Part shown: positions 45,251 through 61,840 of the stretch, piece by piece | Numbering within the stretch: the first letter of the stretch is position 1 | How the letters are laid out: every line of letters begins with the position of its first letter | Assembly (NCBI RefSeq): GCF_036373705.1 | Contig: NC_089861.1 | Span: 1,053,501-1,117,500, forward strand | Length of the DNA stretch: 64,000 bases | Source of the DNA: Amia ocellicauda | Lineage: Eukaryota > Chordata > Actinopteri > Amiiformes > Amiidae | Direction of reading: 5' to 3' | The notes under the pieces: generated by a model | What the model saw: the letters and a program-made list of their open reading frames with translations, nothing else | Told to the model about the DNA's origin: nothing | The model's database searches: none | Made by a program: the position numbers and the translations under genes

Positions 45251-45431
45251 AGTAGATAGTAGGGTTTTTTGGGCGCGGCCTATTTTGTTATGACGTATGC
45301 CCTAAGCTTATTCATATTCCTACGTCATAATTGGGGGGCGTGATTTTAGAGTTATTTCCTTAATTATTCCTACGTCATATCCGTCAGAAAGTGTACACCC
45401 CTAAAACCCTGAACAACAAGGCCACCCATAA
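45251..45431 (+). repeat. Polinton left terminal inverted repeat
   Basis: 181 bp, starting agtagatagtagggtttttt. It matches the complement of 61660-61840 with 2 mismatches. It holds three CRE/ATF-like cores: TGACGTA at 45291, and TACGTCA at 45321 and 45371. Confidence 0.96.
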
Positions 45432-45522
45432 CCGGTTGTTCTTGTTGTTCTTGTTGGTCAACTGTAGAGTGTGAATGGGTCGGCTCTTCCTGTAGTTGTT
45501 GGGGTCTTTTTTAAATATACAT

Positions 45523-45850
45523 GTAATGGTCCCAGGTCTTAACAATGCCTGTTTTGAATAGTGTGTTTATCATATTCACACTGTCTCTGTCTCTGTCTGT
45601 CTCTCTCTCTCTCTCTCGCCCAAGCATTTTATAAGATCAACAAGTTCTGTTGTCTGTAATGGGCCCAGGTCTTAACAATGCCATTTTGAATAGTGCGTTT
45701 ATCATATTCACACTGTCTCTGTCTCTGTCTCTGTCTGTCTCTATATCTCTCTCTCTCACACAATCATTTTATAAGATCAACAAGTTCTGTTGTCTGTAAT
45801 GGTCACAGGTCCTAACAATTCCTGTTTTGCATAGGGTACTTATGTTAACC
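45523..45850 (+). repeat. Subterminal tandem repeat of about 133-140 bp
   Basis: Units start at 45523, 45656 and 45796 (gtaatgg, then aggtcttaacaat); the third is partial. Each full unit has a (ct)n tract and ends ataagatcaacaagttctgt. It lies between the left TIR and the first gene, a place where regulatory or replication signals might sit; that role is inferred. Confidence 0.85.
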
Positions 45851-46723
45851 CCAATGTATATGGCTCTGTCTCTCCCCTCAAATTTAATTAAAAATAAAAT
45901 TAAAAAAAGAGGGTGTGTGTGTGTGTGGGTGTTTGTGGGTATAGGTTAATTGTTTTTGTTAAAAAAAAAAAAAAAAAAAAAGCTGTGGTTATATTTTATC
46001 TCACACATAATGTGTTCATTCGTTTTACTTAAATACATTCTAGGGTCTTAAAGCTCATAAGAGTTAGACTTAAGATAAGGATATGTTTTTAAGGTATTTT
46101 AGCAGGCTCAATCCCTGATGATAAGGAATCATTTAAAAAATAAAAACAACTGATCACTCAATGCTAAATAGATCACAACACTCAAGGCTAAATCACTCAC
46201 ACCACGGGGGGCGGGGGTGGGCTCAGACAAACGTAGGTATGGCATGTGGTCTCAAAACATTCAGAATACTTTTAAACTATATAATTTATAAGCTTTGTAA
46301 AATAAACCCAAATATCTCTTTTGTGGGGATAAACGCTGTTCTGAGTAGTTTGTGACTTGTTTAATACCAAACAAAGCATCGCTATTAAAAAAAAAAAAAA
46401 ATCACTGTAAAAGCGCTACTTATTTTAGATCTTTATAGTTATTTTCTTGGCTCAGGTTGTTTTTTAGCGCGTATAAAGGCCTGAAATATTCTTAGTGTTT
46501 ATTGACTATAGGTCTTGATGCTTAAAAATGTTTTTTTGAGAGACCAAAAGGTTCTAATAAAAGTTTAGAGTAGAGAGGAGAGAGATCGTCGCCATCTTGG
46601 TTTCTATTTGAAATTGATGCAGGGTCATTTTATTGGTTGGTTTTGATATGTTAATTGGTAACAGGACGGCACAAAGGCCAGCCCAGAACAATGCCTTACA
46701 AGCAGATCCGGCATCCGGCCAAC
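45851..46723. other. Polinton left non-coding region
   Basis: No supported gene. It contains a (gt)n tract near 45912, a poly(A) run at about 45961-45982 and another near 46387. Short open frames here have no recognisable features. Confidence 0.5.
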
Positions 46724-46733
46724 AGTATAAGTA
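46724..46733 (+). promoter_or_regulatory. TATA box-like site of the spliced accessory gene
   Basis: agtataagta about 70 bp upstream of ATG 46799. The spacing allows a transcript start about 30 bp downstream and a short 5' UTR. Confidence 0.55.
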
Positions 46734-46798
46734 TGAAGGTCTGGTCTTCAGCTCGACAGACTCATACTGACCTTTCGATTTAAGCCTAAAGATCAACA

Positions 46799-48849
46799 AT
46801 GTCCGGAAACAACATCAACGACTTCGATTTAAACGAGTTTTTAGGTAAGTCTTCAGATTATTTTCATTGACTCAGAGCGGGTTGTGGTCATGTATTGTAA
46901 ATAAGGTTATAACATCTGTTTTAAGTTCTGTAAAATTATTTTTCAGCCAGTCAACAGGAGTTAATTCCCAACGCTGAGGATATCATCTGGAACAACGACG
47001 GTAAGATTTTTGTGTTTGCGCTCATGGGTTCTTATGTATGGGTGTGTGGGTGTGTTTTGAAGCGGCTCATTAGAGTTATGAAAACGTTTTAATATATATT
47101 AATGGCGGTCTCTTTAATTACACAGAAACTATCGAAAGGCCTGTGATTAATGTCTCCGAGGATCAACCAAGAGAAGTGGTTGTCCCTAGACAGGCTGTCT
47201 GCCGACCGGGTAAGAACTAAACCCCTGTTTGTTTGTATAACGTTTCTGTAAGATGTTTGAGGCCCGTTTTGTTAATTTTAAAAAATATCCTTTCTAACAG
47301 TATTAAGAAACGTGGTTCGAGACAACGAAAGGCCTTCCACATCGAGGGCTTGTTTCGTTTTACCTTCGAGAACCGTAACCTTTCAAGAATCTGAAAGGCC
47401 GTCAGCCCCTGTATCTGATAGCGGTGAGTATATATCTGCCGCTTGTAAGAGGTTAAAGCTTTTTATAAAGCGGGGTGGTTAAAGGTTAAACATGTCTCTT
47501 ACCTTCACAGAAGTGCAAAAAGCTAAACCAGCTGAAAAACATAAGAAACGATTATTCTTTGGAGGTAAGTAAGATCTTTCAAACTTTAATGTTTTTAAAA
47601 GGGTTTTGTTTGCCCGTTGAGGGCTAATATTTAAGCGAGGGGTGGCCATTTCCTGTAGGTCTTGGGGGTTCTGGGAAAGATCTTTAGAAGTCCGGACAGG
47701 TCTAGGCTTGTTTCTGGGGCATGTGTTTAGAAATGACCGATTGCCCGACCGTCTGGTTAGGAAGTAAAGCTGTCCGAAAGGTTTTAGTAAGTTGTTTGGC
47801 TTATCTCCCGCAATTATACTTCTGTTTTAAAGTGGCTGTAGGAAAAGGCTTGAAGGTGTTCATTGTATTTAATATTTAAACAGATCGTGAAAACGTTTGT
47901 GAAACAGGAAGTCCCGGGATCAGGAAGCGTTTACACTTGGAAGGTTCGTTTAAAAATGAAATGTGGTGTGTGTGTGTATAAAAAGTGTTTTATTAACAAT
48001 ATTACAGTTTTTAAAGAAACATTTAAGAAACAGTTTATTTACAGAGGCTTCTCTGTTTTACATTTATTATCAAGTCCTAATAAATATATTGTCTGTAAAT
48101 AATAAGGCGTTGTAGTGAATGTCTAAGCCTATTTTCAAAGGTCTAAAAAAGCTAAAGGTTTTGAAGGTCCTGGACATGTTGTTTTAAGTTTGATTTCTGT
48201 CGCCGTTTAAAGATGTAAATGTAATGTATATTTTTATTCTTCCCAAGACTCTTGGGATAGTCATTCTGTGGATGAGCTATTGAGGACAATTACCCCGTCT
48301 AAGTGGGATCAAACATCTTCCCCGGAGAGATCACCGAGAGGATCCCCCACGGTGGTCTTGGAGACCCCCCAACATCTACTCAGGCCACAGCCTTCTGGGG
48401 GTAATTCAACAATCCAGATTCAGCCCGCCGCATTGTCGGGCGGAACAAATACAGGCAGCCAACAACCTCAGGGGTCGCCGTCAGTCAGGGTTGACACACC
48501 ACCCAACGACGGACTGGTTTCAACATCGTCCCCCCAGCCCCGTTTCTTGGCTACAGAAACGCTGAACAGTACACCGCAATTGGCCAGGGTGTCACCGCAA
48601 AGGCCTTCTTGGTCTCCGTCCGTGAGTATACGCTCGCTCCCTGCCTCCTTCGACCGAGATTTACCGGAGCGACCATCCTTTGCAGCTGAGCCAGGCCACC
48701 ATCCCCCGGAGCTACTTCCTGAAGGTCGGCATGAGTTGCTACATGCTTTGTTACTAAATCAAAGACTTGTGTTAGTGGGGCAAAACCTTGTGATAGAGAG
48801 CCAAAACACCCTTATTAATACCCTTACTAACGAATTGTACCGTATTTAA
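46799..48849 (+). CDS. Spliced 7-exon Polinton accessory gene, unknown function
   Basis: Not recognised as a known family. Exons: 46799-46844, 46947-47000, 47126-47209, 47301-47423, 47511-47564, 47884-47943, 48248-48849. Every junction is GT-AG and every intron is phase 1. The total is 1023 nt, 340 codons plus stop. Features seen: an acidic/hydrophobic N-terminus (DFDLNEFL in exon 1), basic RxL-type motifs KKRLFFG (exon 5) and RKRLHLE (exon 6), and a Ser/Pro-rich stretch in exon 7 with TPSK, SPER and SPQR. The C-terminal segment is leucine-rich (LLHALLLNQRLVLVGQNL) and could form a helix or coiled coil. AATAAA signals follow at about 48895-48912. The motifs suggest a nuclear regulator touching the cell cycle, which is inference. 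Exon 6 has the weakest donor (GTTCGT). Confidence 0.75.
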
Positions 48850-48915
48850 TGTTTTAATAGATACAAAACGCCTTACTATTATGGGTTGTTGGAAAAATAA
48901 AAAATAAATAAAAAA

Positions 48916-51900
48916 ATGTCCGGCCTTGGTAAAAGAACTCACAAACTAAAGGATTATGAACAAGTTAGGGCCCCAAAAAGACCTTCCCGAGAGAACATCC
49001 CCGGCCCTGTTGTGAACTCCTCTGATGTCCCAATGAACCAGGAACTATTACAAATGATAAATGATTTAAATAACCCCCAATCACCACCGATAGAATGTGA
49101 ATTAACAGACTTACCGGTGAACCCCGACCTGTTACAGATGGTCAATGATCTAAATAACCACCTCCCAACGGTAGCGCTTATAGAGGTTCAACCCATAGTT
49201 CACCCCGATTTGTTTGAAATGGTGGAGGCTTTGGAGACGCTACCCCGACCAAATTCTGCCCCTATTATAAATTATTTGAGACAATTAGAACACAGTACGG
49301 CGGCAGAAGCAGCCGTCACTATAGAGGAGGGTCTTGACATTAACCGGGTGGATATCTTTGAAGGACTTTTACAGGCTTTAAATGAGCCTCCTCAAAAAGG
49401 GGGTTTTGTAGATGTCAGCGGTGGGGGTGTTCGGAATGTGGAGGGTTCTGAGACTGATAAGGCTGTGGAGGACATGCTCTGTGAGAATGTAGGGGTTGAA
49501 GGCTCTGTTCAAAATGATGATGTGTCCAAGAGTACCAGAGATCCCGTGATTATAGATAGACCGGCCTATAACAATTTTGAAATGATTCAGCGTTTTAATT
49601 TTGCAGAACTTTTAAATTGTGACAATTATGCAGAAATATTTGTCAACATACACGAGACCTTGCAAAACATGCTTGAACAGGTTGCTGAAAGGGTCAGACC
49701 TCGAGATGTTGTACAGTTAGAACTCAGAGGGGATGATTTGTTTAGCAACCTATCTGTAATGCTGAGTGGAGATAATTTAGATGTTGATGAATTTCTGGCT
49801 AAAATCGAAGCGTTATTGCAAAGTAACGCATCCATCTTAGCTGATGAAAGTCTGTCTCTGGTAATGAATGTGGTTCGTAACCCTGAGGGTGGGGCGCTTA
49901 GAAGACTGTCGAAATGCTTGAAGAACGACATAATTAGGAACAAGCTCAGGCAATTAGTGGTGAGTTCCAATGGGGACAATAAGCTCTGTTTTGCTTACAG
50001 TTTAATAAAACTACTCACCCCCGACATGCCTGAACCCCAAGCTATGCAAGAGGCTTTAATGCTTCATCAGAGGGCCGGCTTAAACTCTCAACAGATGGTT
50101 GCCTTTTCAGACATTGCCATGTTTGAGGAGTTGTTGTCTTTAAAAATTGTTGTGTGGTACCGTTGTGAGGTAAAGGAAGTATTTGTGAAATTTCAGACAC
50201 ATCCTGAAACCCATACACAGACACTGTTTCTCTTCCTAAGTGATAGTCATTACTTTGGAATAAAGAGTTTGACGGCTTTTTTGGGTTGTTCGTATGTTTG
50301 TCATTGGTGTTATAAGGCCTTCAATGATAAGCTTAAGCACCGCTGTGACGGTTACTGTAACGTCTGTTTCAATCCGCAATGTCGTAAGGGTTTGGCCCCT
50401 ACCATCCGATGTAAAGATTGCTTAAGGATTTGTCTCTCCGCGTTCTGTTTTTCCGAACATAAGGTACAGAGGGCCGCTGCTGAGGGGGTTAAAAAACGGA
50501 GTTATTGTGATCAAACTAAATATTGCCCGCAGTGTTGCCTCCAGTACCGTTTTCATGAGGTTAAACCACACAAATGTCTGGAACAGAGATGTAGGATCTG
50601 TAATGCGGATTTAACCCCGGGGTCTGAACACCAGTGCTTTATTCAGCCGGTTAAAAAGGAGCCGCCGCACAACCGGTATGTCTTTTTTGATTTTGAATGC
50701 CGGCAAGAAAACGGGGTCCATGTTGCTAATTATATACACTGTATTGACATGTTGGATTGTGAGTGGTCAGCTAGCGGTGAGAGTTGTGTCAGGGATTTCT
50801 TTACGCGGTATCGCGGTCCAAAATACCTCAATTACACATTTATTGCCCACAATGCTAAGGGTTATGATTCTTACATATTGATGAAGTATCTGGTGGAAAA
50901 TGGGGTGACCCCAAAAATAATAGCTCAGGGTAGCAAGATCATGTGTTTCACCGACGAAGCTTTCAACCAACGTTACATAGACTCGTTAAATTTCCTCCCC
51001 ATGAAATTGAGCGCTTTGCCTAAAGCTCTGGGTTTTGAGGCTCAGAAGAAAGGTTGGTTCTGCCATTTTTTTAATACTAAGGACACTCAAAATTATCGAG
51101 GGTCCTACCCGCCCGCCTCTTATTATGGGGTTGATACTATGATGTCTCATGAGAGGGAGGAATTCTTTAAATGGTACAATACGGTTAAGGGAGGTGTTTT
51201 TGATTTCCGAGAAGAGATGGCCGCTTATTGTAAAAATGATGTGGTGATCCTTAAAGAAGCCTGTTTGCGTTTCCGCGCCGAGGTTATCAACACATCGGGT
51301 CTCGACCCTTTGCAAAGTGTGACCATAGCGTCTCTCTGCATGAAAATGTATCGATCCAATTTCTTGCAGAAAAACACTATAGCGGTCACCACTTCTGACA
51401 ACTATCGTGCTAGACAAAAGAACTTTTCGACTGTCTCCATACAGTGGCTGGAATATCTGAGTGCCCGGGATAACATCTTCATCAGACATGCTTTAAATCA
51501 AGGGGAAGTCAAAATGGGGCCTTACTACTTAGACGGTTTTAGCGACGTGTCCGGGCGGCGTACCGCTTATGAGTTTGCTGGTTGTATTTACCATGGCTGT
51601 CCTCAGTGCTTCGACCCAAACACCTTTAACCCCGTAACACAAAAACTCTGCGGTGATATGTACTATGATTTCCAGGAACGAATTGAAACTTTAAAAAACA
51701 CCTATGGTTTGAATGTGCTGGTGATTTGGGAACACACGTGGACGACCCTGAAGCAACAGGATGTGGGGGTACAACGGTTTATGGAAACCTTGGACTTTCC
51801 TGAACGTCTAGAGCCCAGGGATGCGTTATTTGGGGGTCGTACCAACGCCCTCTGTTTACATTATGAGGTAAAGGAGGGTGAGAGAGTAGATTACTATGAT

Positions 51901-53154
51901 TTCACCAGTCTGTACCCTTATGTCAACAAGACCAAAATGTACCCGGTGGGGCATCCAACCATTGTTTATCGTGACTTTCTCGAAATCGGACAGTACTTTG
52001 GTTTGATCAAGGTCACCATGTACCCTCCTCGCGAGCTGTTCTTACCCGTGTTGCCTTACAGGTGTTCGGGAAAATTGATGTTCCCTCTGTGTAGAACGTG
52101 TGTGGAAACTGAAAATCAAAATACCTCTTGTCTGCACAGTGATGACGAGAGAGCGCTGACGGGTGTCTGGTGTAGCATTGAGCTTGACAAGGCGTTGGAG
52201 AAAGGTTACAGAGTCGGTAAGGTGTATGAGGTTTGGCATTTTTCTGAAAAATCTGATACTCTTTTTTCTGATTACATTATGACCCATCTGAAAGGGAAAC
52301 AGGAGGCATCGGGCTATCCCTCATGGTGTGTTGACGCCGCAGAAAAAGAGCGGTACGTTCAGCAATATTTTGAAAAGGAAGGGATCCGTCTAGAGCCGGG
52401 GAACATAACTGTAAACCCCGCCAAGAGACAAATGTCCAAACTGATTTTAAACAGTCTGTGGGGTAAGTTTGGGGAAAGAAATAACCGTCTAAACACAACC
52501 TTGATTAAAACCCCTGAACAGTTTATAGAATTTATGTTTTCCAAACAACATGCAGTATCACACTTTCAATTCTTAAATGACCACGTGGCACAGGTCCAGT
52601 GGAGGGCCCCTAAAGATTTCCCCACCAAACAGGGAAACGTTAATGTTTTCATAGCGGTTTTTACCACGGCTTACGCCCGGCTTGAACTGTACAACTTAAT
52701 GGATCAGCTGCAGGAACGCACGCTCTATCATGATACTGACTCTGTAATCTTTGTCACCAGGCCAGGGGATTGGGTCCCTCCCCTCGGTGACTACCTTGGG
52801 GAGTTAACGAGCGAGCTAGATCCTCAGGACCACATAGTGGAGTTTGTTTCAGGGGGTCCTAAGACTTACGCATACAGAACGGCTGCGGGTAAGACCTGTA
52901 TGAAAGTTAAGGGTTTCACTCTGAACCATTGTAACAACAAGCTCATTAACATCAAGTCTCTGACGACCCTGGTACAAAGTTTTGTAACCGAGAAAGACGC
53001 GCCTCCTCGCGAGATTATTACAGCCGGAAATCAGATCTATCGCAATAAAAAGGGGTACACATTGGAAAATAGATCACTAAACAAACGGTTCAGGGTGGTG
53101 TACAATAAAAGAGTGTTGAAGACTGATTATACCACTCTGCCTTATGGATATTAG
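48916..53154 (+). CDS. POLB: Protein-primed family B DNA polymerase (PolB)
   Basis: Replicates the linear element using a protein primer. 1412 aa. Residues about 40-110 hold three imperfect repeats of the type NPDLLQMVNDLNN. A possible OTU-like cysteine-protease motif follows (D354, C358; H445). A Cys/His-rich zinc-binding region covers roughly 450-580. The 3'-5' exonuclease has DFE at about 592, the IAHNAKGYDS block and YCKNDVV. Polymerase motif A is DFTSLYP (D995). Motif B is KLILNSLWG (K1175, N1179, G1183). Motif C is YHDTDS (D1273, D1275). All catalytic acidic residues are present. ATG 48916 is the first in frame after the accessory gene. The 3' end overlaps the ATPase start by 11 bp. The N-terminal extension makes it long for the family. 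Confidence 0.95.
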   Translation: MSGLGKRTHKLKDYEQVRAPKRPSRENIPGPVVNSSDVPMNQELLQMINDLNNPQSPPIECELTDLPVNPDLLQMVNDLNNHLPTVALIEVQPIVHPDLFEMVEALETLPRPNSAPIINYLRQLEHSTAAEAAVTIEEGLDINRVDIFEGLLQALNEPPQKGGFVDVSGGGVRNVEGSETDKAVEDMLCENVGVEGSVQNDDVSKSTRDPVIIDRPAYNNFEMIQRFNFAELLNCDNYAEIFVNIHETLQNMLEQVAERVRPRDVVQLELRGDDLFSNLSVMLSGDNLDVDEFLAKIEALLQSNASILADESLSLVMNVVRNPEGGALRRLSKCLKNDIIRNKLRQLVVSSNGDNKLCFAYSLIKLLTPDMPEPQAMQEALMLHQRAGLNSQQMVAFSDIAMFEELLSLKIVVWYRCEVKEVFVKFQTHPETHTQTLFLFLSDSHYFGIKSLTAFLGCSYVCHWCYKAFNDKLKHRCDGYCNVCFNPQCRKGLAPTIRCKDCLRICLSAFCFSEHKVQRAAAEGVKKRSYCDQTKYCPQCCLQYRFHEVKPHKCLEQRCRICNADLTPGSEHQCFIQPVKKEPPHNRYVFFDFECRQENGVHVANYIHCIDMLDCEWSASGESCVRDFFTRYRGPKYLNYTFIAHNAKGYDSYILMKYLVENGVTPKIIAQGSKIMCFTDEAFNQRYIDSLNFLPMKLSALPKALGFEAQKKGWFCHFFNTKDTQNYRGSYPPASYYGVDTMMSHEREEFFKWYNTVKGGVFDFREEMAAYCKNDVVILKEACLRFRAEVINTSGLDPLQSVTIASLCMKMYRSNFLQKNTIAVTTSDNYRARQKNFSTVSIQWLEYLSARDNIFIRHALNQGEVKMGPYYLDGFSDVSGRRTAYEFAGCIYHGCPQCFDPNTFNPVTQKLCGDMYYDFQERIETLKNTYGLNVLVIWEHTWTTLKQQDVGVQRFMETLDFPERLEPRDALFGGRTNALCLHYEVKEGERVDYYDFTSLYPYVNKTKMYPVGHPTIVYRDFLEIGQYFGLIKVTMYPPRELFLPVLPYRCSGKLMFPLCRTCVETENQNTSCLHSDDERALTGVWCSIELDKALEKGYRVGKVYEVWHFSEKSDTLFSDYIMTHLKGKQEASGYPSWCVDAAEKERYVQQYFEKEGIRLEPGNITVNPAKRQMSKLILNSLWGKFGERNNRLNTTLIKTPEQFIEFMFSKQHAVSHFQFLNDHVAQVQWRAPKDFPTKQGNVNVFIAVFTTAYARLELYNLMDQLQERTLYHDTDSVIFVTRPGDWVPPLGDYLGELTSELDPQDHIVEFVSGGPKTYAYRTAAGKTCMKVKGFTLNHCNNKLINIKSLTTLVQSFVTEKDAPPREIITAGNQIYRNKKGYTLENRSLNKRFRVVYNKRVLKTDYTTLPYGY

Positions 53155-53821: not shown

Positions 53822-54157
53822 ATGTCTGTTCGGATTAAAAGAAATCTGCCGCTTTTGCAAATGTTATTTGAGGGGAGCCCGCGCCATAGGAAAGCTGTGC
53901 TGGCTGGGGCCCCCTCGGATTTGATCGAGACCCTGTGTGAAATAGCTTTTAACATCTTACGCGGTAATATACCCCTAACCCCTTCTCAACATTCTAAACT
54001 CAAAAAACAAAAAGCGGTAATCAAGATCATCGCTAATAAGAGGTATTCTATTAAAAGAAAAAGAAAGAAGATTAATCAAACCGGGGGTTTTATAGGACCG
54101 CTGTTGAGCATAGCCGTGCCTTTCCTAACCAGTCTTCTAGCTTCCAGAGTGGGTTAA
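53822..54157 (+). CDS. Small basic Polinton protein with adenain-type cleavage motif
   Basis: 111 aa. It resembles the short conserved protein that follows the ATPase in many animal Polintons. An N-terminal helical region (LIETLCEIAFNILRGN) is followed by a highly basic stretch (YSIKRKRKKI). A hydrophobic C-terminal segment (FIGPLLSIAVPFLTSLL) comes last. The joint between the basic and hydrophobic parts reads Q86-T-G-G-F, which fits the adenovirus protease rule (M/I/L/N/Q)xGG|x. It may be a virion protein matured by the protease encoded at 55082-55654. The start follows the ATPase stop by 6 bp. Role inferred. Confidence 0.7.
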   Translation: MSVRIKRNLPLLQMLFEGSPRHRKAVLAGAPSDLIETLCEIAFNILRGNIPLTPSQHSKLKKQKAVIKIIANKRYSIKRKRKKINQTGGFIGPLLSIAVPFLTSLLASRVG

Positions 54158-54159
54158 TA

Positions 54160-54903
54160 ATGGAATATGCTCAGAAAATGTTTTTGATCCCTCAGGAGCA
54201 GCTTGAGAAACTGAGAAAAATTTTTGTCGGGCCAGAGCCCATTAGACAAACGGTCGAAAACAACCTGGACTCTGAAATGAAAGCTATACTGGCCAGGGCC
54301 GATTTAAATCAGTATTCCAAAGCCCAGATGTATAGCAACACGTTACAGCGCTACCTCCGTCTGGTTAGACAGGGTGAAAAAGATCAAAACATTTTAACTT
54401 TAACCATGGCCTCTCAAGAAAATGGTTCTGGGGCTGATGCGGGGGGTACGGTTGATAAAGATGTTGCGGTGCCCGAACCTGTTGAGAGTTCAGAGGGAGA
54501 TGTTGTAACGGATGTTTTGAGAAACATGCCGGCCAGAAGCAAAAGACATGCAGAATATATTCTGCACAAAATGGTTCAGAAACCGCGGGTAACGACTTGG
54601 AATGAACAGGGTGAATTTGTTTTTAAAGGACAACTGATCAAAGGTTCACACATGTTTGATTTGTTGAAGAGTGTCACTAGCACTAATAAGGTACCCGATA
54701 GTCGCCGACCTGTAGGCTGGAATGCTTTCCTACAGGCGATGGCCTGTCTGAACATGCCCCAATCAACAGTCCCTAACCAGGAAACGCGACAAAAAATCCG
54801 TCTGTGTAAAGAGGCGGTGACTGGTCTGACTCCGATATCTCATTACTCTGATCGTGCTGAGCAACCATCCTCAGGATCTATCCATCGTTGGGAAGCTTAT
54901 TAA
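54160..54903 (+). CDS. Conserved Polinton protein, unknown role
   Basis: 247 aa. The N-terminal ~70 residues (LDSEMKAILARADLNQYSKA, then YSNTLQRYLRLVR) look like a block widely found in animal Polintons. A low-complexity acidic/Gly linker covers about 85-120. The C-terminal part contains FVFKGQLIKGSHMFDLLKSV and a helical end. No catalytic motif seen. It begins 2 bp after the preceding stop codon. Position among virion genes suggests a structural or assembly role, not proven. Confidence 0.65.
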   Translation: MEYAQKMFLIPQEQLEKLRKIFVGPEPIRQTVENNLDSEMKAILARADLNQYSKAQMYSNTLQRYLRLVRQGEKDQNILTLTMASQENGSGADAGGTVDKDVAVPEPVESSEGDVVTDVLRNMPARSKRHAEYILHKMVQKPRVTTWNEQGEFVFKGQLIKGSHMFDLLKSVTSTNKVPDSRRPVGWNAFLQAMACLNMPQSTVPNQETRQKIRLCKEAVTGLTPISHYSDRAEQPSSGSIHRWEAY

Positions 54904-55081: not shown

Positions 55082-55639
55082 TTAACACGCATGACATCTT
55101 TTAAAATCCTCACAAGAACACCCCATCTGTATACATGGCCGGCTAGGGTCGTAAGTAATTGTGTTATAAGGGGGGGTCCACAGTGTCCTGACAAACTCTG
55201 CCACTTTTTTATCATTTTGGCCTAAATCCTCACTGTACAAGGACATAATATCGGGGTATGACCTTCCTTTAGATCTATGATATAAGAAAAACACACAGTG
55301 TTGACCACAAGTGAAGGTCTGAAGACTTTGTACTTGACGACCGCTGTAAATGGTTTCTTGACAGCTGTTGAGCAGAAAGTTATTGATCTTCCGAGGGAAA
55401 GGTCTGAAATCCGGGGGGTTTCCATAGGAATCAAAAAATTCCCCACGGCGGTCCTCCCTTAGATAAATAGCCAGCCAATGTTCTCCGGGCATATTTTTAG
55501 GGTGTGTGTTGATTATGTACATTGCAGGTAAATTCTTGATCTTAAATTTAGGCAGCTGGTCGCAGGCGTAGACTCCTTGAAACACTTTCCGTGAGCCGGC
55601 CAGGGCATTCATGATGTGGTTGAGCTCTCTGGTGTTCAT
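55082..55639 (-). CDS. PRO: Adenain-like cysteine protease
   Basis: Maturation protease of the adenovirus-protease family, cleaving virion precursor proteins. The start used is ATG 55639 (MNTRELNH). An upstream ATG at 55654 would add five residues and overlap the capsid gene by 14 bp. Counting from the upstream ATG, the catalytic residues are His59 (GEHWLAIYL), Asp75 (FFDSYG), Gln109 and Cys120 (CGQHCVFF), in the family order. The C-terminus is cysteine-rich (MGCSCEDFKRCHAC). At about 185 aa it has a normal length. It lies directly downstream of the major capsid gene. Two neighbouring proteins carry matching cleavage motifs. Confidence 0.92.
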   Translation of the reverse strand: MNTRELNHIMNALAGSRKVFQGVYACDQLPKFKIKNLPAMYIINTHPKNMPGEHWLAIYLREDRRGEFFDSYGNPPDFRPFPRKINNFLLNSCQETIYSGRQVQSLQTFTCGQHCVFFLYHRSKGRSYPDIMSLYSEDLGQNDKKVAEFVRTLWTPPYNTITYDPSRPCIQMGCSCEDFKRCHAC

Positions 55640-55640
55640 T

Positions 55641-56948
55641 TTAATAATAATCATACAGAACGTTTCTCCTCTGATTCACCTCAATAATGTTGTCAAACAC
55701 AGCATACACGACCATATTTACAGTGCGTGGTAGAGGCTGCTTGAAACGCATCTCCAGACGCATATTGCCCGTCTTCATCAGTGAAAAATGTTGTCCACAC
55801 TCTTCGTCAGGGGTCAGGTTGAAACCGTACAGGGTGTAACCGCTGCAGTATTCCCGGCGATCGATCAGCAGAGGTTGATCCTTGAGATGGCGACCCATAG
55901 CCAGTACTAGACTGTAATATTCACGAACCGCGTTGCCGTTTTCAAAGTCAGGTTGAAAAGGTCTGGATGGAACCTGCACACCATCGACGTACAGTGCTAT
56001 AAATTCCGCGTTATAATGTTTAAAGTTAAAGGGGTTCTTGTTGTAAACCCCGGTAAATGCATCATTATCCACGAGACCTATAATAACCTGTTTTGGGAGC
56101 TGGCCTAGAAACAGATTTTCCTGGTTCATCACCCGTGTCCCTGCGGGGATACTGTGGACTTTCATATAGACTCTTTCGATTGGGTACTTGGCGTTTGCCG
56201 TCATTAAAGCCTGCGCATGTCCTAGTTTAACCGCCGGGGAGACGGATACTTTTTTCACAAACAGCGAGGCCGATAATATGGTCAGTTTATATTTTTCAGT
56301 ATCAGGGGTCATCAGACAAAAAGCACTTTTACTACGGATCATTTTAATTTTAATGTCTACCCCGTTGAGCATGAGTTTTTCTTGGAAAAATATGTCTGCA
56401 TGGATATGTCCCATTAGCTCAAAGGTCCTCCCTTCTGTTGAAAAGGCCGTTCTTTTTTGCAAACCCTTATTGAGTCCCTCTGGATCCTTGTCGTCCATAG
56501 CTTCCGGGCTGTCTTTGAAGAAAAGGCCGGGGCTGAACTGTTTGCTTAGGGTCTCCTCACTATAATTAAGGATACACTCCATCATGGCCCTATAGGGGTA
56601 AGTATTGCTGCTTTGACTAATGAGCCGATCTCCCAGGGTCACATCCACCTGTGAAAACATGGTGGCCACCGGGTAATTGATGACCCCAGCGTTGGCCGTC
56701 TTCTCGATTGCATTGCCATCCTCATCAGTCACTTTACAGTTCATTAAAATAAATGTGTTATTCAAATCAATATAATCCTCGCCATTGCCAGCTATAAAAA
56801 ACTCCAGAGGGGCCGTATCTGAAATTGCGGAAAGAGGGGGTATCTCTACATATATGCTCTTATCTATACTCGTTTGAGTGTATGGAACTGTAAACAGATC
56901 CAGTTCTGATTTGACGCATTCTTCCGATAGACTGTGGACAAAAGACAT
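55641..56948 (-). CDS. MCP: Major capsid protein (hexon-like, double jelly roll)
   Basis: 435 aa. It corresponds to the Polinton/adintovirus major capsid (hexon) protein, which forms the icosahedral shell. Characteristic blocks: DYIDLNNTFILMNCKV near residue 57, VATMFSQVDVTLGDRLISQS, and SNTYPYRAMMECILNYSEE; these belong to the first jelly roll. The second half has GYTLYGFNLTPDEE and ends in a strand-rich segment. No lesion. The start is ATG 56948, 2 bp after the stop of the basic protein gene. The stop (TAA) touches the protease start. Identification rests on motif recognition, without structural comparison. Confidence 0.9.
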   Translation of the reverse strand: MSFVHSLSEECVKSELDLFTVPYTQTSIDKSIYVEIPPLSAISDTAPLEFFIAGNGEDYIDLNNTFILMNCKVTDEDGNAIEKTANAGVINYPVATMFSQVDVTLGDRLISQSSNTYPYRAMMECILNYSEETLSKQFSPGLFFKDSPEAMDDKDPEGLNKGLQKRTAFSTEGRTFELMGHIHADIFFQEKLMLNGVDIKIKMIRSKSAFCLMTPDTEKYKLTILSASLFVKKVSVSPAVKLGHAQALMTANAKYPIERVYMKVHSIPAGTRVMNQENLFLGQLPKQVIIGLVDNDAFTGVYNKNPFNFKHYNAEFIALYVDGVQVPSRPFQPDFENGNAVREYYSLVLAMGRHLKDQPLLIDRREYCSGYTLYGFNLTPDEECGQHFSLMKTGNMRLEMRFKQPLPRTVNMVVYAVFDNIIEVNQRRNVLYDYY

Positions 56949-56950: not shown

Positions 56951-57439
56951 TTAAAAGATGTATCCTGAGGCTCTATTTGTCTTTCTTTGAGACTTTCTTT
57001 TTGCAGGTTTTTTCTTGTGCTGCTTCCTTCTCCGAGTGTTTCCACGATATGTTGGAGAATGAGAGCTTCTTCGTTTTTTGTTAGCCACGGATCTTCGTCG
57101 CCCTGGTGGACACATACTGTTTCTTCTTTTACCCCCCCTCCTCGCCATAACCATGAGACCCGAACCCTCCTGCTGATCATGGCTAGCTGCCCGGTTCATA
57201 ACATTGGTGAACACGTCACTAACAATATTTTTAGCCGCTGATTTCAAGTGGGGTCTGGCTATAGCAAAGCCTCTCTTAAGCAGGGGTACGGCCATTCTAA
57301 AGAGACCACGAAAGAGTCCTCCTAGACCGGCTCCATACATTGTGGGGGCTCCTACAAAACCGGGCAAGCCGTTCCCGGCTTGCATCTTGTAATAATCCAC
57401 ATAGGCGCTAGGATCTACATAACCCCTCGAGGTAGCCAT
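56951..57439 (-). CDS. pX/pVI-like basic virion protein with two cleavage motifs
   Basis: 162 aa from ATG 57439 (MATSRGYVDP). Upstream in-frame codons begin only with GTG. The N-terminal part has Gly-rich sequence and an amphipathic segment (GGLFRGLFRMAVPLLKRGF), as in membrane-lytic or core proteins of adenoviruses. The C-terminal 60 residues are extremely basic (KKRRSSHS, RRRKQHKKKPAKRKSQRK), suited to binding DNA. Two sites fit the adenovirus protease rule (M/I/L/N/Q)xGx|G: Q20-A-G-N-G and M34-Y-G-A-G. Probably a capsid-internal core protein. Equivalence to adenovirus pX or pVI is inferred from layout and composition. Confidence 0.75.
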   Translation of the reverse strand: MATSRGYVDPSAYVDYYKMQAGNGLPGFVGAPTMYGAGLGGLFRGLFRMAVPLLKRGFAIARPHLKSAAKNIVSDVFTNVMNRAASHDQQEGSGLMVMARRGGKRRNSMCPPGRRRSVANKKRRSSHSPTYRGNTRRRKQHKKKPAKRKSQRKTNRASGYIF

Positions 57440-57541: not shown

Positions 57542-58192
57542 TCATGATGTTGTCAAATTGGGTGAGACTGGTACGTAGTGCGGCTTGTCATAAGTAATTG
57601 TGACCATGTCATTGCTTTTACCTTTAATAAGTACATTTCTCAAAAGGGGGACATAACTATCCCCGACCCTCTGGTGTGTTATGATATCCGTATACACATA
57701 AAGAGTGTAAAAGCCGCCCCTGATGTCAGCCGGGAAGGGTGCCACCACTTCTGAGAACCTGCTCTCTGTGTCAGAATAGAACCCTAATATACGCCCCAGT
57801 TGTCCGTTGGTTTGAATGCTAATACCAGGTTTTGACACCTTGTACACTCTGTTTTTAATAGGGTTGTAATATAGCTTGATGTTGGGGGTGCCTTCTGAGA
57901 ACTGTTTATGCATCTCATCTAATATTGTATCCACATTGTCATAATAACCTCCTTGTATCGTGAATGTCCATTGACTCTTTTTAACATCGTCAAAAATGGC
58001 GAAGGTGGCATCCTTATCTTGTAAAACAGCCCAAGTGTAAGGATACTGTATTTCCGCCAACCCCACTTCCCACGACCCCCTTAGATCTATAGATTTTCCA
58101 AATTGTACCGTGTAACTGGATATTTCATTTTTAGGGTATATATCGAGAGAGGCGTTACTGGGTAGAGTCACGTAGAAGCCTCCTGATTCCAT
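57542..58192 (-). CDS. Minor capsid protein (penton-like, single jelly roll)
   Basis: 216 aa from ATG 58192 (MESGGFYVTLPSN). The open frame extends upstream, but that part overlaps the integrase end and looks non-coding. The opening FYVTLPSNASLDIYPKN and the WEVGLAEIQYPYTW block are typical of Polinton minor capsid (penton) proteins, which sit at the five-fold vertices. Further blocks include YYNPIKNRVYKV and GRILGF. No lesion. It lies between integrase and the basic core protein on the leftward arm. Confidence 0.9.
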   Translation of the reverse strand: MESGGFYVTLPSNASLDIYPKNEISSYTVQFGKSIDLRGSWEVGLAEIQYPYTWAVLQDKDATFAIFDDVKKSQWTFTIQGGYYDNVDTILDEMHKQFSEGTPNIKLYYNPIKNRVYKVSKPGISIQTNGQLGRILGFYSDTESRFSEVVAPFPADIRGGFYTLYVYTDIITHQRVGDSYVPLLRNVLIKGKSNDMVTITYDKPHYVPVSPNLTTS

Positions 58193-58238
58193 CTTGAGTA
58201 TCGAAAGTAATGCCCCCAACACACCCGCGGGCATGTTG

Positions 58239-59330
58239 TTATAAGGCTTGAATATCACAAACCTGTTGTTCCGGGACCCAACTATTGAACTTTTCAGGCC
58301 ATCCAAGCCATTTCACCAACACATATTTTTTCCGGTTCTGGGTTTTCTCAGCTAATATCTTTTCAACTCTGTATACAATGTCTTTACCCACAATAATTTT
58401 TTGTAACTCGGCTTCGTAAAACGTTCCTTCTATATCCTCCCCGTCATAGTCTTTTAACCGGTACACGGGGGGGTCTCTAGCCACCTGTTCGGTAACTGTA
58501 AAATATTCGTCAGAAAATGTTTGTTCATAACCTTTGGCAAAAGTACTCCTTAGCTTTGAAACGCGAACCACATCGCCGATGTTGAACTTATAAGTAGTTT
58601 TTCCCTTCTTAATAAAGGGGCCGTATAATTTTTTATAGACCTTAAAAGAATTACTTTGATCAACATCTATAGGCTTCATTTTAATACTGGCGTGATACCC
58701 TTGGTTGTAAGCATCGATAAAATCCTGAACTTTATCAAAATACTTGAACGTGTTGACCGCTGTAAAATATCTCCACATTTTGGTCTTTATGGTGCGGTTA
58801 AACCTCTCCACCACCGATGCCTTAAGCTCATTACCGGTGGTGAAATGATGTATTTTGTGTCTCTTCAGTAGATTCTGAAATTCTCTGTTGAGAAACTCTT
58901 TTCCTTTATCAGTCTGCAGTTTTTTAGGACATCGGCCCTGGGACAATATATCCTCAAAGGCCCTTGTCACCGCCCGACCTGTTTTATTATGTAGAATGCG
59001 AGCCCAGGCATATTTTGATAACACATCGATACACATCAACATAAATTTGTGACCATTGTTATGTTTTGATAAATTTGACATATCGACTAGATCCATTTGC
59101 CATTGTGAGTCTATGTCAGTTGCATATACACGGTTTCTTTTAAAGTTAATCCTGAGAGGTTTATGTAAGGTATAGGCGTCTTGTTCCCGTAACCATTCTG
59201 AAACAACCACATCATTAACCTTCACACCGGCCTCAGCGAGTCCCCTTTGAAAACCCTTCTTACACTCCAAACCCCCAATCTTGGCTGGGTTGTAGTATAG
59301 TTCATGCATTTGGGGAGCTTGCCGAGTCAT
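58239..59330 (-). CDS. INT: Retrovirus-like integrase with chromodomain
   Basis: 363 aa from ATG 59330 (MTRQAPQMHELYYNP). An upstream in-frame GTG at 59348 is ignored. The rve-type catalytic core has D80 (WQMDLVDM), D141 (LQTDKGKEF) and E175 (VVERFNRT), all present. An SH3-like region follows (YKFNIGDVVRVSKL). The C-terminus is a chromodomain (VYRVEKIL, YVLVKWLGWPEKFNSWVPE), which in such integrases binds modified histones and guides insertion. It joins linear element DNA to the host with a 6-bp stagger, matching the atcatg duplication. A TATA-like GTATAAAAA lies at 59370-59378 on the same strand, about 40 bp upstream. Confidence 0.95.
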   Translation of the reverse strand: MTRQAPQMHELYYNPAKIGGLECKKGFQRGLAEAGVKVNDVVVSEWLREQDAYTLHKPLRINFKRNRVYATDIDSQWQMDLVDMSNLSKHNNGHKFMLMCIDVLSKYAWARILHNKTGRAVTRAFEDILSQGRCPKKLQTDKGKEFLNREFQNLLKRHKIHHFTTGNELKASVVERFNRTIKTKMWRYFTAVNTFKYFDKVQDFIDAYNQGYHASIKMKPIDVDQSNSFKVYKKLYGPFIKKGKTTYKFNIGDVVRVSKLRSTFAKGYEQTFSDEYFTVTEQVARDPPVYRLKDYDGEDIEGTFYEAELQKIIVGKDIVYRVEKILAEKTQNRKKYVLVKWLGWPEKFNSWVPEQQVCDIQAL

Positions 59331-59369
59331 TCTGCCAAATAAACACACAGACCCACACTATGCGCAAAG

Positions 59370-59378
59370 TTTTTATAC
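59370..59378 (-). promoter_or_regulatory. TATA box-like site of the integrase gene
   Basis: GTATAAAAA on the minus strand, about 40 bp before ATG 59330 and just beyond the stop of the neighbouring gene. Confidence 0.55.
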
Positions 59379-59384
59379 AAGGTT

Positions 59385-59390
59385 TTTTAT
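59385..59390 (-). terminator. AATAAA overlapping the stop codon of the Bcl-2-like gene
   Basis: On the minus strand GAATAAAAAACC contains the stop TAA (59389-59387) inside AATAAA. The poly(A) signal therefore begins in the last codon, a very compact gene end. Confidence 0.6.
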
Positions 59391-59893
59391 TCAACTTCAG
59401 GAGAGCAGATACCCCTTTTTAGACATTTGAGAAAAGTATAACATACACAACAATTTTTTCTACGGTCCAGACAAAAAGAAATCAGATGATTGGTTACTTG
59501 ATCTATATCAACAAATACCTGTTTCTTTATCTTGTAGGCACACACCTCAGTTACATATGTAAATAAAACAACAATATGACCTATTTTAAAAGTAAACAGA
59601 GGGGTATTAAACATGCTCAGTAAAAGGTCATACAGATGTTGATGAAATGGCCTAATATCATTCTTGGCCCCCTTGAGCGCTTCATCCCAGTGTTCGTACC
59701 CCCCGGTCTTTGTTACAGCAACCATTAACTTTTCCAGGTTTGAAAGTTGATCCTCATCGATGGTTAAATCTGTAGAGAAAAGGCTCGCGTTGGCTACTTT
59801 TCTGTCAAGCACATGGTGTAATAGCGCTCTCAGGTTAGCTGCAGAGTGTTGATGACAGAACCAGTTGCAGCAGCAGTCCAGAACATTCCCCAT
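59387..59893 (-). CDS. Accessory protein, Bcl-2-like candidate
   Basis: 168 aa from ATG 59893 (MGNVLDCCCNWFC); the codon opening the longer frame is TTG. The helical middle and end resemble the Bcl-2 fold. A hydrophobic helix after SMFNTP (FTFKIGHIVVLFTYVTEVCA, residues 100-119) sits where the BH1/central helix would be. A following amphipathic helix (VDIDQVTNHLISFCLDRR) is placed like the BH2 side. The canonical NWGR core is not preserved. No C-terminal membrane anchor; the end is Cys-rich. Gly2 with Cys7-9 could allow lipid attachment. An apoptosis-blocking role would fit a virus, but this is inference from pattern only. It starts 12 bp after the stop of the next gene. Confidence 0.4.
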   Translation of the reverse strand: MGNVLDCCCNWFCHQHSAANLRALLHHVLDRKVANASLFSTDLTIDEDQLSNLEKLMVAVTKTGGYEHWDEALKGAKNDIRPFHQHLYDLLLSMFNTPLFTFKIGHIVVLFTYVTEVCAYKIKKQVFVDIDQVTNHLISFCLDRRKNCCVCYTFLKCLKRGICSPEVE

Positions 59894-59905
59894 GTTCAAA
59901 GTCCC

Positions 59906-60754
59906 TTAGTTCAGGTCAGAGTCTGAATCAGTGGCGTAGATGTCGAATTCTTCGTCGCTGCCCCCAGCTTTAACTTCTTTACAGAAGAAATAAGCTTTTA
60001 GCTTGCCAGCGGTTTTTCTACTTGGCTCATCCAGGTCATTGAGCAGCTGCCCAAGTTTCTCTATTATAAACGGCTCCTTTTTCAGCTCCAGCAAAATCTC
60101 ATCTATGATTTTCTGGACTTGTCCAGCAGTGACATGTATGTGGGAGTAAGACAGAGCCTTGATTAGTGCCGGTTTCAGCCACGGTTTGTTCAGTCTTCTG
60201 TAAAACACGTTGAAATAGAACAGGAAATAGTAACGGTCTGGTTCAAACAAACAACTGTGTCTCAACTGACTGGGGTGATTCACTTCACACCCCCGACAGA
60301 CTTCTTTCAGAGCTCGGTCGATGAGAGCACTCAGAATATACACCAGGGTGCTTTTAACCACTCTGCTTACTTGGACACCTACCCCGGGCATAAATCCTGC
60401 GTCTTCATCACGCCCCCGAGACAGTCCGATGCTCATTGGGTCGCCTGGTGGTTTGTGGGGTGTTTCTACATCCATTGGACTGACCCCCTCCTGAGACGCA
60501 CAGACGGTAGACAGTTCGGCAAAATCGAGGCCCTCCATGAGCTCCAGAGGCTGGGGATCCCCGAGACTCATTTGGACATCCATCGCCCCGCATGTTGTTT
60601 CGTCCTGAGGGACCGGGGTCTGAGGTCTTGGAGGGTAACCGCAGTCAGAGGGTTCCGCAGTGTATACAAAATCTGGGGAATAGAACCAGGGTTGATCCCG
60701 GGTTTGAAGAGGCCTGTAGAGCCTGTCGACGTCCGCAGCTTTCGGGTAAGACAT
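59906..60754 (-). CDS. Accessory protein with Cys/His cluster, unknown
   Basis: 282 aa, not recognised as a named family. The N-terminal 125 residues are Pro/Asp/Glu-rich and probably disordered. A compact C-x2-C-x3-HPSQ-x2-H-x-C cluster (C153, C156, H160, H166, C168) looks like a metal-binding site. It is followed by aromatic, helix-rich sequence (DRYYFLFYFNVFYRRLNKPW). The C-terminus is acidic (YATDSDSDLN), with SDEE and SDSD that could be CK2 sites. ATG 60754 is preceded by a TATA-like element about 40 bp upstream. This architecture recalls regulatory proteins of small DNA viruses, but no homology is claimed. Confidence 0.6.
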   Translation of the reverse strand: MSYPKAADVDRLYRPLQTRDQPWFYSPDFVYTAEPSDCGYPPRPQTPVPQDETTCGAMDVQMSLGDPQPLELMEGLDFAELSTVCASQEGVSPMDVETPHKPPGDPMSIGLSRGRDEDAGFMPGVGVQVSRVVKSTLVYILSALIDRALKEVCRGCEVNHPSQLRHSCLFEPDRYYFLFYFNVFYRRLNKPWLKPALIKALSYSHIHVTAGQVQKIIDEILLELKKEPFIIEKLGQLLNDLDEPSRKTAGKLKAYFFCKEVKAGGSDEEFDIYATDSDSDLN

Positions 60755-60790
60755 TCTCTTTAATTTTAAACCATGAATGAATTGTTGCGC

Positions 60791-60797
60791 CTTTTAT
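60791..60797 (-). promoter_or_regulatory. TATA box-like site of the 282-aa gene
   Basis: ATAAAAG on the minus strand, about 37-43 bp before ATG 60754. Confidence 0.5.
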
Positions 60798-60832
60798 CCT
60801 ATCTCTTCACTACGTCACGACACACCGCCCTC

Positions 60833-61543
60833 TTAGAAGAGAGTAGACCCTGAGCCGTCAGACCCCCCTCCAACCCCCCACAGGTCGTCTGTTTTATCAT
60901 CGTCGTCGTCATTCAAGGGGGATATATAATCCATAATCCAGCATATTCTCCTTCTAACAGAATCCAGTTGTGAACATTTGGTCAAGATGTCAAAACCATC
61001 ATTTATACAGTTTATGACCTCTTTCAAGAACGGCCAGTCCACGGCGTCAAACATAATTTCAGTAACCTGTTTTTCTGGAGCCTCCACAACCCCTTCAATA
61101 GGGTTTGTAATCAGGGTACTGCTAAACAAAACCTTACGATCAGTAGTTAGAGATAGACTCTTCACCACTGTACCGTAGTTCTGCAAGCTTTCCCATTCAC
61201 ACCTTTCAAAACTCTGAGTCGGAGACTCCGTTTCGCCTTCTCTTGGACCCTCTTGCAAGCCTTCTAGAGTCTTATCCACAAGCCCCAGGTCTCTCCATGC
61301 CATCACCTTCAACCAGTCCTCATAAGAGTATTCAATCACCGTCTCAAAAGGTTCCAACGTACCCTCCTTCTCTCCCAAAGCAAAAAGCTCCACTCCAACA
61401 TAGCTGGGATCCCTTTTAAAGCGGTAACCCCGTTGACCCCCCCAGAACAACACCCAGGAGCGTTCAATCTTCAAATTGGTGAGTACAGGAACCCTTGCCC
61501 GGGATTGTTTCTTGCGGGGTTTCATGTTGATGTCGCTGGACAT
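60833..61543 (-). CDS. Right-end accessory protein, unknown, acidic tail
   Basis: 236 aa, not recognised. The N-terminus is basic (MKPRKKQSRARVP), a possible nuclear localisation signal. The middle has aromatic strand-like segments (RSWVLFWGGQRGYRFKRD). A helical part near the end (VRRRICWIMDYISPL) leads to a run of Asp (NDDDDDKTDD) and a Gly/Ser-rich tail. It is the gene nearest the right terminal repeat, often the site of early or host-interaction genes in linear DNA viruses. ATG 61543 is the first in frame. A TATA-like TATTTAAG lies about 67 bp upstream. Confidence 0.6.
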   Translation of the reverse strand: MSSDINMKPRKKQSRARVPVLTNLKIERSWVLFWGGQRGYRFKRDPSYVGVELFALGEKEGTLEPFETVIEYSYEDWLKVMAWRDLGLVDKTLEGLQEGPREGETESPTQSFERCEWESLQNYGTVVKSLSLTTDRKVLFSSTLITNPIEGVVEAPEKQVTEIMFDAVDWPFLKEVINCINDGFDILTKCSQLDSVRRRICWIMDYISPLNDDDDDKTDDLWGVGGGSDGSGSTLF

Positions 61544-61609
61544 GTTGAAGAAGCGGGATGTTTCAGATGCTGAGAATTAAAGAGGTATTGCCTAAAAGCA
61601 GCGCGGGGT

Positions 61610-61617
61610 CTTAAATA
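61610..61617 (-). promoter_or_regulatory. TATA box-like site of the right-end gene
   Basis: TATTTAAG on the minus strand, between the right TIR and ATG 61543. Confidence 0.5.
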
Positions 61618-61659
61618 GATAGGAGAGTTTCGGGGCGTTGCCTTCAGAGGGGGGGGTCT

Positions 61660-61840
61660 TTATGGGTGGCCTTGTTGTTCAGGGTTTTAGGGGTGTACAC
61701 TTTCTGACGGATATGACGTAGGAATAATTAAGGAAATAACTCTAAAATCACGCCCCCCAATTATGATGTAGGAATATTAATAAGCTTAGGGCATACGTCA
61801 TAACAAAATAGGCCGCGCCCAAAAAACCCTACTATCTACT
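61660..61840 (-). repeat. Polinton right terminal inverted repeat
   Basis: Complement of 45251-45431 over 181 bp with 2 mismatches. One mismatch changes a TACGTCA core to TACATCA, so this end keeps two of the three CRE-like cores. Confidence 0.96.

What the first reader, a model, noticed from the sequence alone, without database searches (positions are those of the whole stretch)
45251..61840. Near-intact endogenous adintovirus-type Polinton with exact ends
Sequence shows 181-bp inverted ends differing at 2 positions, AG/CT termini, a 6-bp target duplication and 13 open genes covering replication, integration, packaging, maturation and capsid. Such complete copies with no visible stop or frameshift are uncommon and point to recent activity.
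Basis: partly seen in the sequence, partly recalled or inferred. Interest (0 to 1): 0.9.

Follow-up and report, generated by a model that had tools for sequence, protein, structure and literature searches.

The report
Broken provirus from a booming family
A 16.6-kb DNA virus-like element (a Maverick, or Polinton) sits in what is probably a fish chromosome with clean ends, and an unfilled copy of its landing site lies beside it; this copy itself has damaged genes, but it belongs to a family of hundreds of near-identical copies that spread through this genome recently.

Summary
The ends are real: 181-bp inverted repeats (2 mismatches) and a 6-bp duplication, ATCATG. A near-identical copy of the joined flanks with one ATCATG lies 1 kb to the right, showing the empty site. 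Layout and proteins match vertebrate Mavericks/beta-adintoviruses; 134 intact copies were already published, so the kind is known. 'No frameshift' is wrong: relative to the copies compared, the minor-capsid gene is frameshifted (last 41 residues lost) and the packaging ATPase lacks its invariant P-loop lysine. New is the family: the host assembly (988 Mb, probably a teleost) holds 352 + 344 exact 30-bp termini. Of the 100 listed, 80 pair up, suggesting roughly 280 elements with both ends exact, and more with one. They include two one-direction proviral arrays, estimated by probing at ~31 and ~20 copies. Of 25 distinct insertions resolved, 23 have a perfect 6-bp TSD; its central step is pyrimidine-purine in 20 of 23 (P = 4e-10). 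Mechanism: integrase-made insertion plus host segmental duplication. tRNA targeting was tested and not supported.

The parts
45245..45250 (.). left target-site duplication ATCATG
   Evidence: single copy in the empty site at 62859-62864
45251..45431 (+). left terminal inverted repeat, 181 bp
45432..48915 (.). left accessory region, no ATG frame of 80 aa or more; holds a 140-bp x 2.3 tandem repeat (45522-45834) and an open frame without a start (48211-48849)
48916..53154 (+). PolB, 1412 aa, protein-primed type by family; exonuclease and polymerase motifs present
   Evidence: Pfam DNA_pol_B_2 1.3e-45; motifs found at residues 592, 646, 771, 995, 1175, 1271 (motif meaning recalled)
53144..53815 (+). 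packaging ATPase (FtsK/A32 type), 223 aa; P-loop lysine lost in this copy, probably dead
   Evidence: Pox_A32 weak, below its cut-off; 1360 homologues, Terrapene and Astyanax adintovirus FtsK 65%
53822..54157 (+). PM by position, 111 aa
   Evidence: order as in PMC8097293; assigned by position only
54160..54903 (+). PZ by position, 247 aa
   Evidence: assigned by position only
55082..55654 (-). adenovirus-type maturation protease, 190 aa; His, Asp and Cys motifs present
   Evidence: Pfam Peptidase_C5 3.8e-5, motifs (meaning recalled)
55641..56948 (-). major capsid protein (hexon type), 435 aa
   Evidence: 1124 homologues, up to 72%; departs from 3 of 105 columns conserved at 95% or more
56951..57439 (-). 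PW by position, 162 aa, basic
   Evidence: assigned by position only
57542..58234 (-). minor capsid (penton) protein by position, 230 aa in this copy; frameshifted near the C terminus
58239..59330 (-). retrovirus-type integrase with C-terminal chromodomain, 363 aa; D, D, E motifs present
   Evidence: Pfam rve 1.2e-12, Chromo 3e-9
59387..59893 (-). accessory ORF, 168 aa, no detectable homologue
   Evidence: 12 candidates, none at E 1e-3; model pLDDT 42
59906..60754 (-). accessory ORF, 282 aa, no Pfam match
   Evidence: also open in a copy on C6
60833..61543 (-). accessory ORF, 236 aa, no Pfam match
   Evidence: also open in a copy on C6
61660..61840 (-). right terminal inverted repeat, 181 bp
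61841..61846 (.). right target-site duplication ATCATG
44481..45250 (+). left part of the interrupted host segment (its right part is 61841-61935)
61936..62076 (.). 141-bp AT-rich, partly palindromic filler between the two host-segment copies
62077..62953 (+). uninterrupted copy of the host segment = empty target site; single ATCATG at 62859-62864
   Evidence: 2 substitutions and 18 gap columns against the joined flanks of copy 1, 859 aligned bases

Best explanation
This is an endogenous vertebrate Maverick (Polinton, beta-adintovirus type) of a recently expanded family. Each dispersed copy was made by the element's retrovirus-type integrase, which inserts the linear protein-primed DNA with a 6-bp staggered cut centred on a flexible pyrimidine-purine step (insertions and target signature shown; enzyme and replication steps inferred from the proteins). 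A few insertions landed in host segments that later multiplied as tandem or segmental duplications and carried the provirus with them, giving one-direction proviral arrays (shared TSDs, flanks and orientation shown). The window copy inserted into one unit of an approximately 0.87-kb host segment that is present twice in the assembly; the other unit keeps the empty site (shown). It now carries damage in the minor-capsid and packaging-ATPase genes that the other copies compared do not have, so by itself it should not make packaged particles (inferred).
For: Ends and TSD. Empty site. Gene content and converging two-module order. Homologues. Family: all 40 scored major-capsid hits full length and printed as 99-100% identical, of 1009 loose candidates. 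Exact 30-bp termini: 352 forward + 344 reverse, reversed control 0/0. Of the 100 termini listed, 80 form 40 +/- pairs; 36 of the 40 are 14-18.5 kb and 27 of these lie outside the C6 array. Perfect TSD in 26 of 26 copies with both TIRs found, of 29 fetched, and in 18 of 20 further dispersed copies; 25 distinct sites in all, 23 with TSD. Arm-to-arm TIR mismatches 0-5 in the 26. Central YR in 20 of 23, P = 4e-10 against flank YR frequency 0.242; five steps looked at. Arrays: C25 plus one C42 copy share TSD CACATC (read on the other strand in C42), C6 copies share CCTGTG, with alike host flanks. Stratified random probes hit the element in 14 of 20 (C6) and 7 of 20 (C25), all in one orientation. 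Damage.
Against: No virion, transcript or new insertion was observed. 20 of the 100 listed termini are unpaired and 4 pairs are under 14 kb; 3 of 29 fetched copies lacked one TIR and 2 of 20 dispersed ones had no TSD, so part of the family is broken or rearranged. Two of 18 ATPase pieces carry an in-frame stop, and one C6 copy has an internal deletion in the minor capsid gene. Arrays could be partly mis-assembled. The terminus count is not a count of intact copies. PolB, PM, PZ and the accessory genes were not compared systematically between copies.
Confidence: 0.87

Rival explanations
1. The filled and empty segments are two alleles of one locus that the assembler laid end to end: the insertion is heterozygous, so the element was still moving very recently.
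For: Copies differ at only 2 of 859 aligned bases, apart from 18 gap columns at microsatellites or short stretches, as alleles might. The window copy has 30 of 4302 sites private against 7 other copies, far more than the about 5 expected since insertion if the flank pair were a paralogous clock (P = 3e-14; 0.006 at the upper confidence bound, about 18 expected).
Against: A 141-bp AT-rich palindromic filler separates the copies and resembles neither of the 40-base stretches beyond the outer ends that were printed; a simple haplotype join would not create it. The private count also includes changes made before insertion and compares only array or small-contig copies from four contigs.
Confidence: 0.3
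2. True local tandem duplication came first and the element then inserted into one unit.
For: Same geometry, filler at the junction as in end-joining repair (repair habit recalled), single hexamer in the empty unit.
Against: Coverage and reads not available. The genome-wide search for the segment did not complete.
Confidence: 0.65
3. The integrase is drawn to tRNA genes, which would explain the arrays.
For: tRNA genes lie 34 bp (C6), ~594 bp (C25) and 264 bp (C2) from three insertions. One further site has a B-box-like word without a called tRNA gene (C6_1409048).
Against: 0 of 17 further distinct dispersed insertions have a called tRNA gene within 1 kb (286 bases of one site's flanks read N); 3 of 25 overall. 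None in the window. Array insertions were over-sampled by the top-40 list. No tRNA density of this genome could be measured. A cryptophyte PLV survey also saw none within 1 kb (PMC12220804, passage).
Confidence: 0.06
4. Exogenous virus or contamination assembled into the contig.
For: Proteins are viral.
Against: Sits in a 42-Mb contig (C18) with host flanks, TSD and empty site; other copies carry different flanks and TSDs.
Confidence: 0.01

Closest known systems
Intact vertebrate Mavericks (Barreat and Katzourakis 2021, PMC8097293; abstract, passages and part 1 of 2 of Results seen)
   Same: Two converging modules PolB-ATPase-PM-PZ and INT-mCP-PW-MCP-PRO, accessory regions on both sides, TIRs, 6-bp TSD, 16.6 kb (published mean 16.9 kb)
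   Different: End motif AGTAGA instead of the published (AGT)2, (AG)3 or (AC)3A types; this copy is not intact; hundreds of near-identical TIR ends in one genome, where the paper's maxima are 38 intact copies and 287 mostly degraded loci (counted differently); proviral arrays
Terrapene box turtle and Astyanax cavefish adintoviruses
   Same: Packaging ATPase 65% identical to each; integrase with chromodomain as in the definition in PMC11071296 (passages)
   Different: Only the ATPase could be compared by name; three right-end accessory ORFs, one of them searched and without detectable homologue
Vertebrate 'F54H12.2-like' proteins (Maverick major capsid proteins in fish, reptile and amphibian genomes; that they are Maverick capsids is recalled)
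   Same: Major capsid protein 56-72% identical over 90-100% of its length in the 120 hits listed
   Different: Best match (72%) comes from an unnamed assembly; best named ones 65-67%

Membership tests
Vertebrate Maverick/Polinton | TIRs and 6-bp TSD | tested here: met
Vertebrate Maverick/Polinton | PolB, integrase, ATPase, protease, major capsid | tested here: met
Vertebrate Maverick/Polinton | minor capsid, PW, PM, PZ | tested here: inconclusive
   assigned by position and size only; no convincing Pfam match; model of the minor capsid protein pLDDT 32
Vertebrate Maverick/Polinton | two modules on opposite strands pointing to the centre | tested here: met
Vertebrate Maverick/Polinton | end motif (AGT)2, (AG)3 or (AC)3A | tested here: not met
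   AGTAGA, one base off (AGT)2; shared by the ends of the 26 complete copies apart from one AGTAGG end. The source calls the first two common and reports a new type itself, so it is not an excluding feature
'Intact' Maverick | all eight core frames unbroken | tested here: not met
   minor capsid frameshift; ATPase P-loop lost
Adintovirus (definition in PMC11071296) | rve integrase with C-terminal chromodomain | tested here: met
Adintovirus (definition in PMC11071296) | PolB with N-terminal OTU-like domain | tested here: inconclusive
   Pfam reports no OTU domain; C and H motifs seen by eye only
Adintovirus (definition in PMC11071296) | hexon recognisable by BLASTP to adintovirus hexons | tested here: inconclusive
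   strong hits to vertebrate proteins, none named adintovirus among the 120 of 1124 listed; the ATPase does hit two named adintoviruses

The most novel reading that the evidence does not exclude
The family is an ongoing Maverick outbreak in one fish genome: hundreds of near-identical copies (696 exact termini), with new insertions still segregating. The window would hold both the filled and the empty allele. Some proviruses have turned into arrays of 0.7-0.9 Mb in one direction, so an endogenous DNA virus multiplies both by integration and as host megasatellite.
Probability: 0.3. Interest if true: 0.75.

Novelty: new member of a known kind. Interest (0 to 1): 0.5.

Why it matters
Virions of Mavericks had not been seen as of PMC8097293 (abstract), and most copies are fossils. 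A genome with hundreds of near-identical copies, an empty site beside a filled one and a sharp integrase target signature makes three questions testable. Does the family still jump? Does it jump through particles or in trans? How do host duplications turn proviruses into arrays? It is also a caution: clean ends and long frames do not mean a copy is intact.

Tried and rejected
tRNA-gene targeting looked attractive after the first 8 insertions (3 of 8). It failed on 17 further distinct sites (0 of 17) and is rejected as a general rule.

Bcl-2 likeness of the 168-aa ORF (by eye, recalled motif) was not supported: Pfam nothing, PDB phmmer nothing relevant, no homologues, fold model pLDDT 42. PDB searches of the 282-aa ORF and the major capsid gave nothing useful. 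The minor-capsid model failed (pLDDT 32), so no fold search was run. PHROGs: one weak match (E 0.086, unknown function) for nine proteins. IMG/VR scans with integrase, PolB and a major-capsid alignment found no relatives.

Paper searches: adintovirus, Maverick/Polinton fish, adintovirus plus Bcl-2 (none), Polinton plus tRNA gene, Maverick plus tandem array, tRNA arrays, target preference. No title or abstract start in these listings, and no passage that I saw, reports a comparable single-family amplification, proviral arrays or a central-YR target signature for Mavericks. Papers opened: PMC8097293 (abstract, passages, part 1 of Results), PMC11071296 (passages), PMC12220804 (passages), PMC9683012 (abstract and outline), PMC2888827 (passages; not used).

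Full report
Check of the observation. The inverted arms 45251-45431 and 61660-61840 are 181 nt and differ at two positions. The outermost bases are AGTAGATAG and CTATCTACT, and ATCATG flanks both ends. So the coordinates given are exact. Twelve ATG frames of 100 aa or more form two converging blocks (three overlapping antisense frames set aside): PolB, ATPase, 111 aa and 247 aa on +; protease, major capsid, 162 aa, 230 aa, integrase, 168, 282 and 236 aa on -. A thirteenth frame (48211-48849) is open but has no start codon; an upstream exon is possible but not shown.

The empty site is in the window. The left flank 44481-45250 and the right flank 61841-61935 recur joined, without the element, at 62077-62953, with a single ATCATG at 62859-62864. 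Joining the flanks of the filled copy and aligning to the empty one gives 859 aligned bases, 2 substitutions and 18 gap columns. Between the two units lie 141 bp of AT-rich, partly palindromic DNA. This fixes both ends and the TSD independently of the TIRs. Whether the two units are neighbours by tandem duplication or two alleles laid end to end cannot be told without reads.

What it is. PolB matches DNA_pol_B_2 (1.3e-45), the protease Peptidase_C5 (3.8e-5), the integrase rve plus Chromo (1.2e-12, 3e-9) and the ATPase, weakly and below the curated cut-off, Pox_A32. The major capsid protein has 1124 homologues (120 listed), the best 72% identical, with named ones from fish, reptiles and amphibians. 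The ATPase has 1360 homologues (120 listed), among them the FtsK proteins of the Terrapene and Astyanax adintoviruses at 65%. Order, strand layout and size agree with the intact vertebrate Mavericks of PMC8097293 (abstract, passages and part 1 of Results). PMC8097293 counts 134 intact copies in 17 species, at most 38 in one genome, and up to 287 loci in all. Motifs of PolB, integrase and protease catalysis are present in this copy (their meaning is recalled knowledge).

It is not intact. In an alignment with the 120 listed ATPase homologues, the copy departs from 2 of 45 strongly conserved columns: the P-loop lysine (114 of 114 sequences with a residue there) and one near the C terminus (118 of 118). 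All 18 other copies read keep the family residues there, so both changes are private to this copy among the 19 read. In the minor-capsid gene the frame ends early with six unrelated last residues. All 7 other copies compared (from four contigs) run on for 41 residues in the original frame, and another frame of the window still holds most of that tail. The major capsid protein looks sound (3 departures in 105 conserved columns). PolB, the 111- and 247-aa frames and the accessory genes were not compared systematically between copies.

The family. The window is in a 988-Mb assembly of 385 contigs (C18:1053501-1117500). Frames in the first 11 kb of the window look like ETFDH and PPID exons (read by eye), and the nearest named relatives include many fishes, so a teleost is likely; the species is not known. 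The 40 scored major-capsid hits are all full length and printed as 99-100% identical, of 1009 loose candidates. The exact 30-bp terminus occurs 352 times forward and 344 times reverse; its reversed control occurs 0 times. Only the first 100 termini are listed: 80 of them form 40 +/- pairs, 36 of these 14-18.5 kb, 27 of those outside the C6 array; 20 termini are unpaired. If the rest behave alike, which is an assumption, there are roughly 280 elements with both ends exact, and more with one exact end. None of these numbers counts intact copies.

Insertions. End regions of 29 copies were fetched; 26 had both TIRs and all 26 a perfect 6-bp TSD. They fall into two groups with shared TSD and host flanks (C25 with one C42 copy: CACATC; C6: CCTGTG) and single sites on C23, C28, C10, C2 and C1. 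Another 20 dispersed pairs from C1-C6 (20 of the 25 full-size pairs in the listing that lie outside the array and had not been fetched; near neighbours were thinned) gave 18 perfect TSDs; three of the 20 were segmental duplicates of other sites. Together with the window that makes 25 distinct sites, 23 with a TSD. The middle step of the TSD is pyrimidine-purine in 20 of 23, against 24.2% of dinucleotides in the flanks (P = 4e-10 for this step, the best of five). Retroviral integrases are known (recalled) to like such flexible steps at the centre of the cut, so this fits the element's own integrase acting repeatedly.

Arrays. Stratified random 350-bp probes hit the element in 14 of 20 cases across C6:49.44-50.18 Mb and 7 of 20 across C25:1.30-2.24 Mb, always in the same orientation. 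At 16.5 kb each this means roughly 31 and 20 copies. Start-to-start distances in the listed part of C6 are 19-30 kb; in one gap about 3 kb of host DNA with a tRNA-Glu gene lies between copies (the start of the next copy inferred from its reading frames). Shared TSD and flanks show that host duplication, not repeated integration, built the arrays.

tRNA genes. Three of the first eight insertions lie within 600 bp of a tRNA gene. None of the 17 further distinct sites has a called one within 1 kb; one of them has a B-box-like word, and 286 flank bases of another read N. The early figure was inflated because array copies filled the top-40 list. No background density could be measured. Targeting is not supported.

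Dating. Flank units differ at 2/859 (95% interval 0.03-0.84%), TIR arms at 2/181, and 30 of 4302 sites are private to this copy against 7 others. With recalled neutral rates near 5e-9 per site per year the flank figure is of the order of 0.2 million years, very roughly. Private changes exceed what the flank pair predicts (5 expected; P = 3e-14, or 0.006 at the upper bound). Either many changes predate the insertion, which could mean that a copy already carrying damage was mobilised, perhaps in trans; or the flank pair is allelic or was homogenised. The comparison copies come from only four contigs and few insertions, which inflates the private count.

Verdict. A real, precisely bounded, recently inserted but damaged member of a known virus-like family, in a genome where that family has expanded to hundreds of near-identical copies.

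Noticed in passing
window 17591-29679: 12-kb array of a 24-bp unit (about 515 copies) with strong GC skew; the minus strand reads long TTTTAAP-type, mucin-like frames.
   Followed up: no
window 14009-16216: 2.2-kb array of a 16-bp unit (about 134 copies).
   Followed up: no
window 1-11400: Frames that look like ETFDH and PPID (cyclophilin) exons, read by eye; suggests a teleost host.
   Followed up: no
window 32105-37085 and 41464-42585: Several Tc1/mariner-like transposase frames, two of them nearly identical (by eye).
   Followed up: no
G000 C1:61436305, C6:42493258, C6:43164270: TIR pairs only 4.6, 6.9 and 7.2 kb apart: internally shortened family members.
   Followed up: partly
L071 and L076 (ATPase pieces on C28 and C6): Same in-frame stop at codon 65 in two copies at unrelated sites: shared ancestry of a damaged lineage, conversion, or recurrent change.
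   Followed up: no
window 59387-59893: 168-aa accessory protein with no homologue in the 5.8-billion-protein search, helical in a low-confidence model; the same frame is open in a C6 copy.
   Followed up: partly
L087, L088 (C2): One insertion sits inside a minisatellite with a unit of about 142 bp, next to two tRNA-Thr genes; a segmental duplicate lies 99 kb away.
   Followed up: partly
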